A stretch of 6,406 bases of DNA, from the NCBI GenBank assembly GCA_946887065.1, contig CAMPKL010000227.1:1-6406 (forward strand), in the 5' to 3' direction. This DNA comes from an uncultured Bryobacterales bacterium. GTDB taxonomy: Bacteria; Acidobacteriota; Terriglobia; Bryobacterales; UBA6623. Below the pieces are notes generated by a model that was given only the letters and a program-made list of their open reading frames with translations, did no database searches and was not told the origin of the DNA. Positions 1 through 5,263 of the stretch are shown one piece after another. Each line of letters starts with the position of its first letter. Positions within the stretch are counted from its first letter, which is position 1. Made by a program: the position numbers and the translations under genes.

Positions 1-728
1 CCGCCGTTCCACTTCAGGCCAACGCGGTTACGGGAATCCAAAACGTGCACGTAATTGCCCGTGACATTGTGCCGCACATAGTCCAGCGGTTTGACGAACG
101 GACCGTCGGTGAACGAACCCTCATAGGCAACGAACGCATCGGCCTTGGCCGCGTTGGGGCTCCAACCGATGAAGCCGCGCCCTGAGTCGTACTGCCCGCC
201 TTGCAAGCGCACGGTCCACTCGTGAGGCAGCGACTCGCGCAAGCGAATCTGCACTACGCCCAATCCCGAAAAATCGCCGTGCTCGGCGTTGAACGGGCCA
301 TTGATTAGCTCGACCTCGTCCACCAACTCGGGCGAGAGGCTCTTGAGCGAGCCCATGTATCCTTGCCCGTGCCCTTGTGTTCCGTGATTCTGCGGGATGT
401 TGTCGACGGTGATTCTCAAACCGCCGTTGACGCCGCCGTGGTCGAGATTAAATCCGAAGCGGCGAATCTCCAGCGACTTTCCGCCGCCCTCGTGCTGGCC
501 GGCGTTGATCCCGGCATCCAACAGATGGAATATTTGGTCGTCGCGTGTGAAGAGCGTCTTGCGGAAAGCCTCGCCGTTGCGCAGATCCAGTTGAGGCCCC
601 AGGGGTTGGGCCGTGATCGTAATCGTCTCGATCAACGGCTTCAACTGTGGCTGCCCGGGCGTCGGCGTCTGTGCCGGTGACGCGCCGACTAGGGCTGCCA
701 GCAGCGCGGTTATTGCGAAGAGGCGCAT
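1..728 (-). CDS. TonB-dependent outer-membrane receptor, N-terminal part (cut by left window edge)
   Basis: The frame is open from ATG 728 to the window edge, giving 242 codons with no stop. Residues 1-20 form a signal peptide (MRLFAITALLAALVGASPAQ). ETITITA (about 34-40) is a plausible TonB box. A plug domain follows at about 50-165, with RRFGFNLDHGG, a VDNIPQNHGTQGHGQGY segment at 108-124, PELVDEVELINGPFNAEHGDFSGLG at about 133-157, then the start of the beta-barrel with alternating strands. Family members carry bulky substrates across the outer membrane using TonB/ExbBD energy. The HGQGY loop and the 'GPF-AE-GDFS-G' stretch fit a TonB-receptor subfamily I recall, but do not reveal the substrate. 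Only about 15 residues separate the signal peptide from the TonB box, so there is no STN signalling domain. It lies 41 bp downstream of the TPR gene and is probably co-transcribed with it. The Shine-Dalgarno is weak (AGGT, 9 nt from the start). About two thirds of the protein lies outside the window. Confidence 0.9.
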   Translation of the reverse strand, partial: MRLFAITALLAALVGASPAQTPTPGQPQLKPLIETITITAQPLGPQLDLRNGEAFRKTLFTRDDQIFHLLDAGINAGQHEGGGKSLEIRRFGFNLDHGGVNGGLRITVDNIPQNHGTQGHGQGYMGSLKSLSPELVDEVELINGPFNAEHGDFSGLGVVQIRLRESLPHEWTVRLQGGQYDSGRGFIGWSPNAAKADAFVAYEGSFTDGPFVKPLDYVRHNVTGNYVHVLDSRNRVGLKWNG

Positions 729-2062: not shown

Positions 2063-3622
2063 CTATTCGACGGGCAAGCCGTCTTCGCCCGGATCAATAT
2101 GCCGGCGGTCGCGGCCGCTCGGCGCTAGCCCTAAATAGGGGAACGATTCCTGGTAGGCGGCGTCGTTAACATTGACGCCGTCGCCCAAGGAGTTATTGGG
2201 GAACCTGTTTAGGCTTGCGCCCGTCGAGTCGGCGGTAAGCACGCCTCCCACTCCGACGCGCAGAACGATGTCCACAACGTCATCGACTAAACGGCGGCCA
2301 TTGGGATAGCCCGCGGCGTCGCCGGCGATCAGGCCCAAGCGTTTGGCTGACGCGGCCGGAGTTGCCGCAACGCCGGTATTGAGACGCAGCATGTCGGCAA
2401 TCGGGCCGCCAGGCGTTCCCGCGGCCGCGATCGGCGGCGCGTAGGTTACCAGCGGAAGCAGGTCGAAGCGCGGCGCTTGCGGCACGGTGAGAGCCCCGCC
2501 GTAAAGCGCTTCGACGATCTTGACGATCGGCGGATCGAGGAAGAAGTCAGCGAATTGTGAGTCGTTCTTGGGCTCGTCCATGCTGAAGCGATCCTTGGAG
2601 CCGATACCAATCAGCAACTCGTTAATCAGCGGATGGCCCATGCGCTGTACCTGTCTGTAGGGTCCGCGCGATTCGCCGAAGGGCAGCAGACGAACGCGGG
2701 CGCGCGAAGTCGTTCCCCAAACGCCGATGGTGGCCTCCGGGGAATTGGCGGGCTCAAGCGTTTCAGTCGACGTCAACATCTCGATCGGAACTTCGATGGC
2801 GATCGCGTTCACGGCGAAGCCGGAAACCATGTCGCTAGCGAGATTTGCGGCAGAGGCGTCTTCCTCCGCCGTCAAGACGCCGGGAATGCCGGAGCCAAGC
2901 TTGCGGAAGTTAGCGGTATCGAATGCGCCGCCGAGATCAATCCAAAACGGATCGTCGACGGTGCCGGCGAAAACCTTGACGCCGTTCGTCGTCGTGTAGG
3001 TCGCCTGTTCGTAGAGCGAAGCGTAGTCCATGGTGCGAGGACCCGGATTCGCGGGCAGCGCATAGAAATTTCCGCCGATGGAATTCTGCCACTGCGTGAC
3101 CACGCCTTTACCGTTGCCCTTGCCGGTCTGACGGGTCACTTTCACCGTGTAGTTCTGGATCTGATTCAGACCCGGGTTGTCGAAAGTACGAATCTGCGGA
3201 GGCACAACCAAGTTGCTCGTGCCTGGCGCCGTCGCTCCGCCGTCTCCAACTCCTGCCATCGCCGTGTACACGCCCGGTAAACGGAAGTTCGTATAGAAAT
3301 TGAACTCAAAGCTCAGGTCCGCTATCGCATCGTGGTTGTTGTCGACGTGAATCTCATACTTGATCTCCGGATCGAAGGGGAACCAAGTGGGCCCGTTCGA
3401 CGGCTCCAAAAGAGGATCCACGCACAGGATCAGGGTCACGTGCGTTGGGTCTCCGGAAGGATTTGGGCTCACGAAGGCATAAAGGTCCGTGATGTCCGCT
3501 TTGTGATCGAGCGCCGTAATGGGCGCCTCTCTATGGTTCGACGAGAAGGACGGCGGTGGGATCACCAGCGATGTGCATGCGACCAGCACCGCAGCCGTCC
3601 TCCATAAGGGTTGTTTCTTCAC
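2063..3622 (-). CDS. Secreted DUF4331-family protein
   Basis: A 519-residue protein from GTG 3622, which has GAGGAG (3630-3635) 7 nt upstream. The frame extends 28 codons further to a TTG, but that lies at the predicted transcription start, lacks a Shine-Dalgarno and would bury the signal peptide. Residues 1-27 are a signal peptide (KKQPLWRTAAVLVACTSLVIPPP). The mature protein begins with the DUF4331 hallmark SSNHREAP (27-34), then DITDLYAFVSP (43-53), an Asp/Asn-rich VDNNHDAIADLSFEF segment (93-107), FAGTVDDPFWIDLG (218-231), GHPLINELLIG (329-339), YPNGRRLVDDVVDIVLR (439-455) and a C-terminal LGDGVNVND...SFPYLGLAP. These are the family's conserved blocks in order, so it looks full length. 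DUF4331 has no established biochemical function. Its position at the head of an operon with a TPR protein and a TonB receptor suggests an envelope or extracellular role. Acidic clusters might bind metal, which is an inference only. Confidence 0.92.
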   Translation of the reverse strand: MKKQPLWRTAAVLVACTSLVIPPPSFSSNHREAPITALDHKADITDLYAFVSPNPSGDPTHVTLILCVDPLLEPSNGPTWFPFDPEIKYEIHVDNNHDAIADLSFEFNFYTNFRLPGVYTAMAGVGDGGATAPGTSNLVVPPQIRTFDNPGLNQIQNYTVKVTRQTGKGNGKGVVTQWQNSIGGNFYALPANPGPRTMDYASLYEQATYTTTNGVKVFAGTVDDPFWIDLGGAFDTANFRKLGSGIPGVLTAEEDASAANLASDMVSGFAVNAIAIEVPIEMLTSTETLEPANSPEATIGVWGTTSRARVRLLPFGESRGPYRQVQRMGHPLINELLIGIGSKDRFSMDEPKNDSQFADFFLDPPIVKIVEALYGGALTVPQAPRFDLLPLVTYAPPIAAAGTPGGPIADMLRLNTGVAATPAASAKRLGLIAGDAAGYPNGRRLVDDVVDIVLRVGVGGVLTADSTGASLNRFPNNSLGDGVNVNDAAYQESFPYLGLAPSGRDRRHIDPGEDGLPVE

Positions 3623-3696: not shown

Positions 3697-3712
3697 GCCT
3701 GTTCAATCAGGC
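3697..3712 (-). promoter_or_regulatory. Small palindrome over the predicted DUF4331 transcription start
   Basis: On the minus strand GCCTG-ATTGAA-CAGGC forms two 5-bp half-sites separated by 6 bp. It begins 2 bp after the predicted -10 element, where a repressor operator could sit. A 5-bp palindrome arises often by chance, so this is weak. Confidence 0.2.
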
Positions 3713-3714
3713 AT

Positions 3715-3741
3715 TACGGCAACCGGCTCGAATCGGATGAG
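3715..3741 (-). promoter_or_regulatory. Predicted ECF-sigma promoter of the DUF4331-TPR-receptor operon
   Basis: On the minus strand CTCATCCGA (3741-3733) supplies a -35 element containing CATCC (3739-3735). After a spacer of exactly 16 bp comes CGTA (3718-3715) as the -10. The same arrangement, with the same spacer length, precedes the ECF sigma gene at 5237-5263. CGTA/CGTC-type -10 elements and a spacer near 16 bp are typical of ECF promoters. As I recall, mycobacterial SigK, a sigma factor paired with RskA, uses a CCATCC-like -35. Transcription would start near 3708, leaving a leader of about 86 nt before GTG 3622. Confidence 0.65.
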
Positions 3742-3743
3742 GA

Positions 3744-3761
3744 GAGTTCGAAAAAGAACTC
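3744..3761 (-). repeat. 6-bp inverted repeat between the anti-sigma stop and the DUF4331 promoter
   Basis: On the minus strand GAGTTC-TTTTTC-GAACTC forms a perfect 6-bp stem with a 6-nt T-rich loop. It starts 12 bp after the anti-sigma stop codon and ends 2 bp before the predicted -35 region. No T-tract follows the stem, so it is not a canonical terminator. It could be a transcript-end hairpin, an AT-rich upstream promoter element or a regulator site. Confidence 0.3.
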
Positions 3762-3773
3762 GGGGCGTGAAAA

Positions 3774-4568
3774 CTAAGTGATGGGGCCGACCCAGATCGG
3801 CGTGGTCGTCGGCTGCGGGCTGCCGCCGGCAGGCTCGTCGGTTATCGCCAGCAGATTGGCGTCCTGCAAGGCGATCCCTGGCTGTGACAGCAACAGCGCG
3901 CGGCCCGCGGGCGTCGGCTGGAAAACATCCACGCTAATCGGGTTGCCTTGCTTCGGGATAATCCAAAGCTGCAGCGTCCGCCCGGGCGCCGAAACCGGCA
4001 GGTTGTCGCCGGCCAGCATCAGCCCGAACTGCTCATTCCAATAGGCGTGCATTGCCGGGCTGTCCGGCGCCTCCAGGGCGACCGCTTTGGTTTCGGGGCC
4101 CGAGATGATGGCGAGAATGCGCTCGAACCGGTCGCTGTTTTCGGCCAGCCGGTCTCGCTCCTCGCTGAGTACCGCGGTTCTGTCCTGCAGTTCGGCGACG
4201 GCAGTTCGCAGTTGCTGCACCTGTTGCCACTGATAGAAAGCGAACAGCAGGAGCCCGGCTGCAATGGCGGCGTAGGCCGCGGCGGCGCGTGGGCTAAAGC
4301 GAGTCGACTCAATGACCGGCGCGGGGCGGACGGTGCGGCTTTCCGCCGCAATCTTCGCCATCAAGTTCTCTTTCACGCGAGGCGAGGGGACTTCAGCATC
4401 CGCGGTAAGTCCGATCTGCGCCACCGTGGCGCGAGCTTCAGACAGAGCGGCCCGCGCTGCGGAATCGCCCTTCCGCAGCAGCGACTCCAACTCCGTCCGC
4501 TCCTCGCCTTCGAGAGTCCCTAGCTCATATTCCAGGCACAAGCCTAGGAGGCGTTCTTGGTCATTCAT
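3774..4568 (-). CDS. RskA-like membrane anti-sigma factor
   Basis: A 264-residue protein starting at ATG 4568, which overlaps the sigma gene's stop by 4 bp (ATGA) and is preceded by a strong GGAGGTG. Layout: a helical cytoplasmic N-terminal domain (1-80, MNDQERLLGLCLEYELGTLEGEERTELESLL) that should hold the sigma factor; one transmembrane helix about 95-113 (AAAAYAAIAAGLLLFAFYQW); a coiled-coil segment about 114-150 (QQVQQLRTAVAELQDRTAVLSEERDRL); and an RskA C-terminal domain about 155-264 with LQLWIIPKQGNPISVDVF and a LLAITDEPAGGSPQPTTTPIW ending. The N-terminal domain lacks the HxxxCxxC zinc motif and has only one cysteine (Cys11), so zinc/redox release is unlikely. Family members release their sigma factor after regulated membrane proteolysis. 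The cognate partner is the sigma factor encoded immediately upstream. Its extracytoplasmic domain would be the sensory part, with unknown signal. Confidence 0.9.
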   Translation of the reverse strand: MNDQERLLGLCLEYELGTLEGEERTELESLLRKGDSAARAALSEARATVAQIGLTADAEVPSPRVKENLMAKIAAESRTVRPAPVIESTRFSPRAAAAYAAIAAGLLLFAFYQWQQVQQLRTAVAELQDRTAVLSEERDRLAENSDRFERILAIISGPETKAVALEAPDSPAMHAYWNEQFGLMLAGDNLPVSAPGRTLQLWIIPKQGNPISVDVFQPTPAGRALLLSQPGIALQDANLLAITDEPAGGSPQPTTTPIWVGPIT

Positions 4569-5215
4569 TGAACACCTCCCATCAGCTCACGCAGCCGCAA
4601 CAGTCCGCCTCGAACCCAACTCTTTACGGTCCCAAGGGGCGCTCCGAGCTTATCCGCTATCTCGGTTTGACTCAAGCCTTCGAAGTAAGCAAGCTCCAAT
4701 GCTTGCCGCTGAGCTTCGGGCAAAGCGCTCATAAACGCCAGCGCGCGGTCAGCCTGGAGCTTGTTATCCACCCAAATATCGATATTTCCGGGAGTCGGAG
4801 GTTCAAGGGTCTGTTCGGTTCCGATCTCAGAGTGACGCTGCTTCTCGCCCTTGCTTCGAAAGCGATCAAGCGCCGTGTTACGCGCAATGGTCAAAAGCCA
4901 CGGCGTGAGGGCGCCTTGGCGTCCGTCGAAACTGCCGGCATTCTTCCAAAGACGGAAAAACACTTCCTGGCAGAGCTCTTCCGCCGAAGGCTGATCTCGC
5001 GTCATCCGCAGCAGCACGGCGTAGACTGCCCGCGAATGACGATCGTACAACGCGGCCAAGGCCTCTTGGTCCCGCCGAGCGGCGACGAGATTCAGCAACG
5101 TCGCGTCGTCGGGCGGTCCTTGCTTTGTTGCAATCGATAGACCTAGCAGCACGGTACTCCCAGGGGCGTAGGGACAGGCTAGCATGGTCGCTCGGCACGG
5201 AGCCGAAGCTGTCAC
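4565..5215 (-). CDS. ECF-subfamily RNA polymerase sigma factor (SigK-like)
   Basis: A 216-residue protein if started at GTG 5215. Region sigma-2 spans about 52-121 (ALAALYDRHSRAVYAVLLRM, DQPSAEELCQEVFFRLW, then GALTPWLLTIARNTALDRFR for -10 recognition). A short linker follows, then region sigma-4 about 164-212 with the helix-turn-helix LSQTEIADKLGAPLGTVKSWV for -35 recognition. There is no sigma-3 or sigma-1.1, as in all ECF factors. GTG 5215 has GAGGG (5223-5227) 7 nt upstream and fits a leader of about 15 nt from the predicted promoter. ATG 5185 (206 aa) has no clear Shine-Dalgarno, and GTG 5152 (195 aa, GGGAG 4 nt away) is closer to the usual ECF length. The frame stays open to 5329, but that would overlap guaA and the promoter. 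The gene is translationally coupled to the anti-sigma gene and probably autoregulated. Confidence 0.93.
   Translation of the reverse strand: MTASAPCRATMLACPYAPGSTVLLGLSIATKQGPPDDATLLNLVAARRDQEALAALYDRHSRAVYAVLLRMTRDQPSAEELCQEVFFRLWKNAGSFDGRQGALTPWLLTIARNTALDRFRSKGEKQRHSEIGTEQTLEPPTPGNIDIWVDNKLQADRALAFMSALPEAQRQALELAYFEGLSQTEIADKLGAPLGTVKSWVRGGLLRLRELMGGVQ
4573..4579 (-). promoter_or_regulatory. Anti-sigma ribosome-binding site inside the sigma gene's last codons
   Basis: GGAGGTG on the minus strand ends 4 nt before ATG 4568 and encodes part of the sigma C-terminus (MGGVQ). With the ATGA stop/start overlap this is a textbook translational-coupling arrangement, which would keep anti-sigma output tied to sigma output. 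Confidence 0.75.
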
Positions 5216-5222
5216 GGTTTTG

Positions 5223-5227
5223 CCCTC
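5223..5227 (-). promoter_or_regulatory. Ribosome-binding site favouring GTG 5215 as sigma start
   Basis: GAGGG on the minus strand lies 7 nt before GTG 5215. Its bases also form the right arm of a 6-bp inverted repeat with GCCCTC at 5242-5247. Confidence 0.5.
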
Positions 5228-5236
5228 GTCCTCTAC

Positions 5237-5263
5237 TACGTGAGGGCGGACAATTCGGATGAG
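5237..5263 (-). promoter_or_regulatory. Predicted ECF-sigma autoregulatory promoter of the sigma/anti-sigma operon
   Basis: On the minus strand CTCATCCGA (5263-5255), with CATCC at 5261-5257, is followed after exactly 16 bp by CGTA (5240-5237). It matches the element at 3715-3741 in sequence and spacing. It fills the short gap after the guaA stop. Initiation near 5230 would give a leader of about 15 nt before GTG 5215, just enough for the Shine-Dalgarno. Confidence 0.65.

What the first reader, a model, noticed from the sequence alone, without database searches (positions are those of the whole stretch)
3715..5263. Matching bipartite ECF promoters before the sigma operon and the DUF4331 operon
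Seen directly: the minus strand has CTCATCCGA at 5263-5255 and at 3741-3733. In both places CGTA begins exactly 16 bp after CATCC (5240-5237 and 3718-3715). Both copies lie in the only gaps that precede the two transcription units, and none is found in the DUF4331-TPR or TPR-receptor gaps. A shared 9-mer plus a 4-mer at identical spacing is unlikely by chance in such short gaps. Inference: this is the binding site of the encoded ECF factor, giving autoregulation plus direct control of the neighbouring exported/transport genes.
Basis: partly seen in the sequence, partly recalled or inferred. Interest (0 to 1): 0.72.

Follow-up and report, generated by a model that had tools for sequence, protein, structure and literature searches.

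The report
Shared sigma-factor promoters before two operons
Two matching DNA switches sit before a stress-type sigma-factor operon and its neighbour operon, and the same switch is found before the neighbour gene in many unrelated bacteria, so the sigma factor very probably turns on itself and a little-studied exported-protein system.

Summary
It is a real, conserved promoter. Of 79 DUF4331 loci, 52 carry ATCC-N16/17-CGTA upstream, where under one is expected; other spacings give 0 or 1. It also precedes 15 of 28 nearby SigK-like sigma genes. In the nearest relative both cores are kept, and only this one of 19 sigma-like genes has the motif upstream on its own strand.

The promoter class is known: ATCC-N16-CGTA is the core of ECF11 RpoE/ChrR promoters (TGATCC-N16-CGTA). 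Different here are the DUF4331-TPR target and the partner: RskA-type in the window, ChrR-cupin in 19 other loci, mostly proteobacterial and planctomycete, which share the target and nearly always the promoter.

Against: in the nearest genome the motif is at background frequency (60 hits; 65 at wrong spacing), so the regulon there looks local; 27 of 79 loci lack it; the TonB receptor's membership is not conserved. Nothing was tested at the bench.

The parts
5255..5263 (-). -35 element of the sigma-operon promoter (CTCATCCGA; core CATCC)
   Evidence: core CATCCGA kept in L001, where the 9-mer reads CCCATCCGA
5237..5240 (-). -10 element of the sigma-operon promoter (CGTA), 16 bp after CATCC
   Evidence: kept in L001
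3733..3741 (-). -35 element of the DUF4331-operon promoter (CTCATCCGA; core CATCC)
   Evidence: the whole CATCC-to-CGTA 25-mer is identical in L001
3715..3718 (-). -10 element of the DUF4331-operon promoter (CGTA), 16 bp after CATCC
4565..5152 (-). ECF sigma factor, SigK-like; start GTG 5152 inferred
   Evidence: Pfam Sigma70_r2/r4; NCBIfam PRK12519 and PRK09646 (SigK), both below their cut-offs; best PDB sequence match 4nqw SigK
3774..4568 (-). anti-sigma factor with RskA_C domain; overlaps the sigma stop
   Evidence: PF10099 4.1e-18; NF052375 antisigma 1.9e-28
2063..3622 (-). DUF4331 protein, probably exported (inferred from its N-terminus); GTG start
   Evidence: PF14224 5.2e-103; start as in homologue P0001
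770..1924 (-). TPR-repeat protein, second gene of the target operon
   Evidence: TPR families; a TPR relative is present in 67 of the 80 loci
3..728 (-). TonB-dependent receptor, cut by the window end; regulon membership uncertain
   Evidence: PF07715; present in L002, replaced by GNAT in L001; a relative in 4 of 80 loci

Best explanation
The two sites are -35/-10 promoters of one ECF sigma factor, the SigK-like sigma encoded between them. Unstressed, its RskA-type partner holds it. When released it directs RNA polymerase to CATCC-N16-CGTA before its own operon (amplifying itself and its brake) and before the DUF4331-TPR operon, so a probably exported, mostly beta protein, a TPR protein and perhaps the TonB receptor are made on demand. 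Shown by computation: the motif, its spacing, its conservation, its match to a known ECF11 promoter core, and its restriction to this sigma gene among the sigma-like genes of the nearest genome. Inferred: recognition by this sigma, the direction of control, the signal and the transcription starts (near 5230 and 3708).
For: ATCC-N16/17-CGTA lies within 301 nt before to 20 nt after the inferred DUF4331 start in 52 of 79 loci (L023 left out, too short); dinucleotide shuffles mean 0.455 (max 3 of 200 runs); random stretches of the same loci mean 0.78 (max 4 of 50 runs); inside the gene 0; spacing N16 31, N17 21, each other spacing from N10 to N23 0 or 1. An unbiased 4+4 dyad count puts ATCC-16-CGTA first before DUF4331 (31 of 79) and before sigma genes (14 of 29). 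It lies before 15 of 28 nearby SigK-like genes; mononucleotide shuffles mean 0.21, random stretches 0.68. Where a sigma with an identified partner is adjacent, the motif before DUF4331 is nearly always there: 6 of 6 RskA-partnered and 16 of 19 ChrR-partnered loci, against 30 of the other 54 (from the lists). In L001 (89% sigma identity) both cores are kept; the CATCC-to-CGTA stretch is identical at the DUF4331 site and differs by two spacer bases at the sigma site. Of 19 sigma-like genes in that genome only this one has the motif upstream on its strand, and no sigma was detected within about 1.5 kb of its three ChrR-cupin matches. In 23 chosen genomes with a motif-bearing DUF4331 but no adjacent sigma-partner pair, sigma genes elsewhere carry it: 5 of 6 ChrR-partnered (30 loci fetched of 54 cupin matches) and 5 of 22 RskA-partnered. 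Known ECF11 promoters are TGATCC-N16-CGTA (passages: PMC5036791; PMC4336711; PMC5507510).
Against: 27 of 79 loci lack the strict motif upstream of DUF4331, including L009, although its neighbouring sigma has one; L025 counts only at the very edge (about 300 nt upstream). 13 of 28 sigma genes lack it; in five of these (L008, L011, L048, L051, L057) the sigma lies downstream of DUF4331 in the same direction instead. 17 of 22 RskA-partnered sigma genes in the trans test lack a close upstream copy. Of 7 more distant plasmid DUF4331 loci looked at, one (L188) has the motif directly before DUF4331; L184 and L190 have copies further upstream in the same direction. Genome-wide in the nearest relative the consensus is not enriched over a wrong spacing (60 against 65), although the tool's other control, the pattern read backwards, gave 33 and 26; 8 of 60 hits were intergenic against 7 of 37 examined of 65. 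CATCC-N16-CGTA alone was commoner (44) than at N14+N15 (45 together) or N17+N18 (55 together), but only 6 of 43 distinct hits were intergenic. Loci are not independent (close pairs such as L043/L050, L048/L051). No transcription data exist here, and the window's own genome is not held.
Confidence: 0.88

Rival explanations
1. The sites are real ECF promoters but are read by a different sigma factor of the same cell (for example a ChrR-partnered ECF11 type), the local sigma being only a co-target.
For: The core equals the ECF11 promoter core, and the same DUF4331 promoter is found with ChrR-partnered sigmas in other phyla.
Against: In the nearest genome 18 other sigma-like genes are at most 34% identical and none has the motif upstream on its strand; no sigma was detected near its ChrR-cupin matches. 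The motif sits before this sigma, and ECF factors commonly autoregulate (general knowledge).
Confidence: 0.07
2. The motif is a binding site of a conventional regulator shared by both operons, not a promoter.
For: Bipartite sites can be operators; inverted repeats lie close to the DUF4331 site.
Against: The motif is mostly in one direction, tolerates 16 or 17 bp and nothing else, matches TSS-mapped promoters, and no sigma-70-like promoter was found anywhere in the window (0 found, 1.1 expected by chance).
Confidence: 0.03
3. The resemblance is chance in short GC-rich gaps.
For: The 9-base core is at about background frequency in the nearest genome.
Against: 52 of 79 loci against under one expected, with a sharp spacing peak; 0 of 200 window shuffles had two copies.
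Confidence: 0.01

Closest known systems
ECF11 RpoE-ChrR regulon of Rhodobacter sphaeroides, RpoE2-ChrR of Shewanella oneidensis, PSPTO_1043 of Pseudomonas syringae
   Same: Promoter core ATCC-N16-CGTA with identical spacing; motif before the sigma/anti-sigma operon itself (passages read: PMC5036791, PMC4336711, PMC5507510).
   Different: The first two -35 bases are TC here, not TG; the partner is RskA-type, not ChrR; the target is DUF4331-TPR, which the passages I saw do not name.
SigK-RskA of Mycobacterium and Yersinia (ECF18 or ECF19 in PMC7509140, ECF19 in PMC7406223; passages)
   Same: Best solved-structure relative of the sigma (4nqw); partner with RskA_C domain; autoregulation of sigK in M. 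tuberculosis is stated (PMC7509140).
   Different: Target is DUF4331, not the MPT70/MPT83 proteins; the two sigma cysteines said to be kept in 94% of ECF18 and 56% of ECF19 are absent. The SigK promoter consensus is known to me only from recall and was not compared.
Sigma-ChrR-DUF4331 loci found here (19 of 80, for example L010, L029, L032, L037, L044)
   Same: Same promoter before DUF4331 in 16 of the 19, and before many of their sigma genes, in some as a divergent pair.
   Different: Anti-sigma partner has a ChrR cupin domain (PF12973; Pfam scans of L010, L029, L032, the rest by similarity) instead of RskA_C.

Membership tests
ECF11 (RpoE-ChrR type) promoter | ATCC-N16-CGTA core | tested here: met
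   against sequences
ECF11 (RpoE-ChrR type) promoter | TG as the first two bases of the -35 (TGATCC) | tested here: not met
   Both window sites read TCATCC
ECF11 sigma/anti-sigma pair | Partner with ChrR cupin domain (PF12973) | tested here: not met
   Window partner hits RskA_C only in Pfam
SigK-RskA | Anti-sigma with RskA_C domain | tested here: met
   PF10099 66.4 bits, cut-off 29.4
SigK-RskA | Sigma over the curated SigK model cut-off | tested here: not met
   PRK09646 152.9 bits, cut-off 226
SigK-RskA | The two conserved cysteines 133 and 183 of SigK | tested here: not met
   The window sigma has a single cysteine, at residue 61 in region 2; in the alignment to 4nqw the cysteines of the second half face other residues (native numbering inferred from the chain). 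The cysteines are stated in PMC7509140 (passage)
Autoregulated ECF system | Same promoter motif before the sigma operon and its target | tested here: met
Autoregulated ECF system | Sigma-dependent transcription from both sites | not testable with these tools
   Needs transcription start mapping or in vitro transcription

The most novel reading that the evidence does not exclude
Promoter and output form one old regulatory module (ATCC-N16/17-CGTA driving DUF4331-TPR, in some lineages with a NicO or HupE/UreJ-type membrane protein) that has kept its DNA switch and target across Acidobacteria, Planctomycetes, Proteobacteria and Myxobacteria while the sensor was exchanged between RskA-type and ChrR-cupin anti-sigma factors.
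Probability: 0.45. Interest if true: 0.6.

Novelty: new variant of a known kind. Interest (0 to 1): 0.47.

Why it matters
It ties a widespread protein family of unknown function (DUF4331) to a specific stress-type sigma factor in many phyla, which makes its inducing signal and role testable. If the partner exchange holds, it is a natural case of a sensor being swapped while promoter and output stay fixed.

Tried and rejected

Regulon search in the nearest genome G001: no convincing further target. Three other intergenic hits close before a gene (L278, L284, L285) precede a DksA/TraR zinc-finger protein, a protein with no Pfam family and a GMC oxidoreductase fragment; in all 5 of 60 right-spacing hits and 3 of 37 examined wrong-spacing hits were intergenic within 350 nt of a gene. 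My gene caller was simple and places some starts too far downstream.

The 'reverse complement control' is not independent (it mirrors the same dyads); I rely instead. In one search the antisense count was 8; five of these (L037, L044, L047, L049, L055) face a divergent sigma gene, three (L072, L077, L079) do not.

Sensor exchange: the sigma tree (35 rows) needs 4 changes of partner label and 0% of 200 bootstrap trees need only 1, but deep branches are weak and well-supported branches force only 1, so repeated exchange is not proven.

Papers: DUF4331 and PF14224 are in 0 of the held papers and DUF4331 with 'ECF sigma' in 0; subscription journals are missing, so this is no proof of absence. SigK + RskA + CCATCC gave 0. 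The ECF reclassification paper that I recalled is not held. CATCC + CGTA + ECF as whole words gave one paper, on a cyanobacterium (listing only). Searches were seen as listings; one passage of PMC6852236 was seen and not used.

Full report
OBSERVATION. CATCC-N16-CGTA occurs only twice in the window; none of 200 shuffles had two. The broader [N]ATCC-Nx-CGTA at any spacing from 13 to 20 finds the same two sites and nothing else, and the DUF4331-TPR and TPR-receptor gaps have none even with two mismatches.

GENES. All on the minus strand: guaA 3' part, ECF sigma, RskA_C anti-sigma, DUF4331, TPR protein, TonB receptor start. The sigma's best sequence relative with a solved structure is SigK (4nqw), then R. 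sphaeroides RpoE (2q1z); the same order was seen for the three other sigmas tried, L032, L026 and L010.

CONSERVATION. A search with a DUF4331 alignment gave 80 loci from bacterial genomes (159 relatives found, the best 80 kept). The nearest, L001 (an Acidobacteria MAG), has the same order guaA-sigma-rskA-DUF4331-TPR. Its DUF4331-promoter 25-mer is identical to the window's; in its sigma promoter CATCCGA and CGTA are kept, two spacer bases differ, and the base before CATCC differs. Of the 79 loci with more than 100 nt upstream (L023 left out), 52 have ATCC-N16/17-CGTA within 301 nt before to 20 nt after the inferred DUF4331 start: N16 31, N17 21, every other spacing from 10 to 23 0 or 1; dinucleotide shuffles average 0.455, random stretches of the same loci 0.78, the antisense strand 8. 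An unbiased count of 4+4 dyads ranks ATCC-16-CGTA first both before DUF4331 and before the sigma genes. From 51 of the 52 sites (L025 lies at the edge of the stretch) the consensus is [CA]ATCC[AG]-N15/16-CGTA: the base before ATCC is C 26, A 23, G 2; the base after is G 25, A 26. The 27 loci without the strict motif are L003, L009, L019, L021, L027, L028, L030, L031, L038, L039, L041, L042, L045, L046, L052, L058-L063, L065-L068, L070 and L072.

THE SIGMA SIDE. 15 of 28 SigK-like genes in the loci have the motif upstream (N16 13, N17 2; N12 and N13 1 each). In six loci with a divergent layout (L032, L037, L044, L047, L049, L055) the two promoters point away from each other between sigma and DUF4331. 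In L008, L011, L048, L051 and L057 the sigma lies downstream of DUF4331 in the same direction, which would give the same feedback through one promoter if they are one transcript (inference). Adjacent sigma genes with an identified partner go with the motif before DUF4331: 6 of 6 with RskA-type, 16 of 19 with ChrR-cupin, 30 of the other 54 loci (lists). In 23 chosen genomes whose DUF4331 has the motif but no adjacent sigma-partner pair, sigma genes elsewhere carry it: of 30 fetched ChrR-cupin loci (54 matches), 6 have an adjacent sigma and 5 of those have the motif at its start (in L197 inside the start of the sigma match); of 22 RskA_C loci, all with a sigma nearby, 5 have it 80-110 nt upstream and one more (L235) about 400 nt away.

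SPECIFICITY IN THE NEAREST GENOME. G001 has one DUF4331 gene and 19 sigma-like genes; only the one at this locus has the motif upstream on its strand, the others are 34% identical or less. Genome-wide, MATCCR-N15/16-CGTA has 60 hits against 65 for N12/13 (patterns read backwards 33 and 26); 8 of 60 and 7 of 37 examined were intergenic. The regulon visible there is therefore these two promoters. The genome is a MAG of about 4.5 Mb in many contigs, so more targets may be missed.

WHAT KIND OF PROMOTER. Published ECF11 promoters read TGATCC(N15)GCGTA in R. sphaeroides (PMC5036791, passage), TGATCC...CGTATT and CGTAAT with primer-extension starts in S. oneidensis (PMC4336711, passages) and mostly TGATCC-N16-CGTA in P. 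syringae (PMC5507510, passages). The window sites share ATCC-N16-CGTA and differ in the first two bases. So the switch is of a known class; the DUF4331 target and the RskA-type partner are the differences.

TWO PARTNERS, ONE PROMOTER. Pfam scans show ChrR-cupin partners in L010, L029 and L032; similarity searches extend this to 19 of the 80 loci, mostly proteobacterial and planctomycete, with some acidobacterial (L009, L046, L053). The window and L001, L006, L008, L025, L026 and L055 have RskA-type partners, as does a Pseudoalteromonas plasmid locus (L188); L002 has an RskA-type gene and a divergent sigma. Window, L001 and L026 sigmas form a supported group (100/98); RskA- and ChrR-partnered sigmas do not form two clean groups, but the deep tree is weak.

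THE TARGET OPERON. A TPR relative is found in 67 of the 80 loci, and a NicO- or HupE/UreJ-type membrane protein in 15 of 80 (several flanks are short), and next to DUF4331 on several plasmids. The TonB receptor next to the window's TPR gene is present in L002 but not in L001, where a GNAT gene follows; a receptor relative is in 4 of 80 loci. The role (metal handling, oxidative stress, envelope) is open; the known ECF11 signal, singlet oxygen, and the transporter neighbours suggest tests, not conclusions.

VERDICT. Real, conserved ECF promoters, very probably read by the sigma encoded between them; an autoregulated system of known type with a target I found described nowhere in the held papers and an unusual mix of partner and promoter.

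Noticed in passing
L029:4570-4594(-); L033 near 159-183(-); L035 near 4639-4663(-): In Hydrogenophilales/Thiobacillus-type loci a second motif copy points away from the sigma gene; in L029 it lies in the start region of a DUF4394 PEP-CTERM gene, a possible further target. No DUF4394 gene was detected in L033 (contig end) or L035.
   Followed up: partly
L185 (Streptomyces anulatus plasmid) 3899-9314: DUF4331-TPR-NicO-type gene next to a fasciclin-domain gene; fasciclin proteins are SigK targets in mycobacteria (recalled). No motif of this type lies directly before this DUF4331.
   Followed up: partly
window 3697-3712 (-): Inverted repeat GCCTG-N6-CAGGC two bases after the -10 of the DUF4331 promoter, identical in L001.
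   Followed up: partly
window 3744-3761 (-): Inverted repeat GAGTTC-N6-GAACTC between the rskA stop and the -35 of the DUF4331 promoter; only 1 of 200 shuffles folded as well; its arms are kept in L001.
   Followed up: partly
L072 near 6821(-), L077 near 6806(-), L079 near 6799(-): A motif copy facing away from DUF4331 with no sigma gene detected there; the divergent gene was not identified.
   Followed up: no
L049: Record titled Klebsiella pneumoniae MAG groups with Gammaproteobacteria MAG sigmas L044 and L047; the title may be a binning or naming error.
   Followed up: no
window 2063-3622 (-): The DUF4331 model (pLDDT 85) has many strands and weak resemblance to carbohydrate-binding modules and Ig domains; not enough for a function.
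   Followed up: yes
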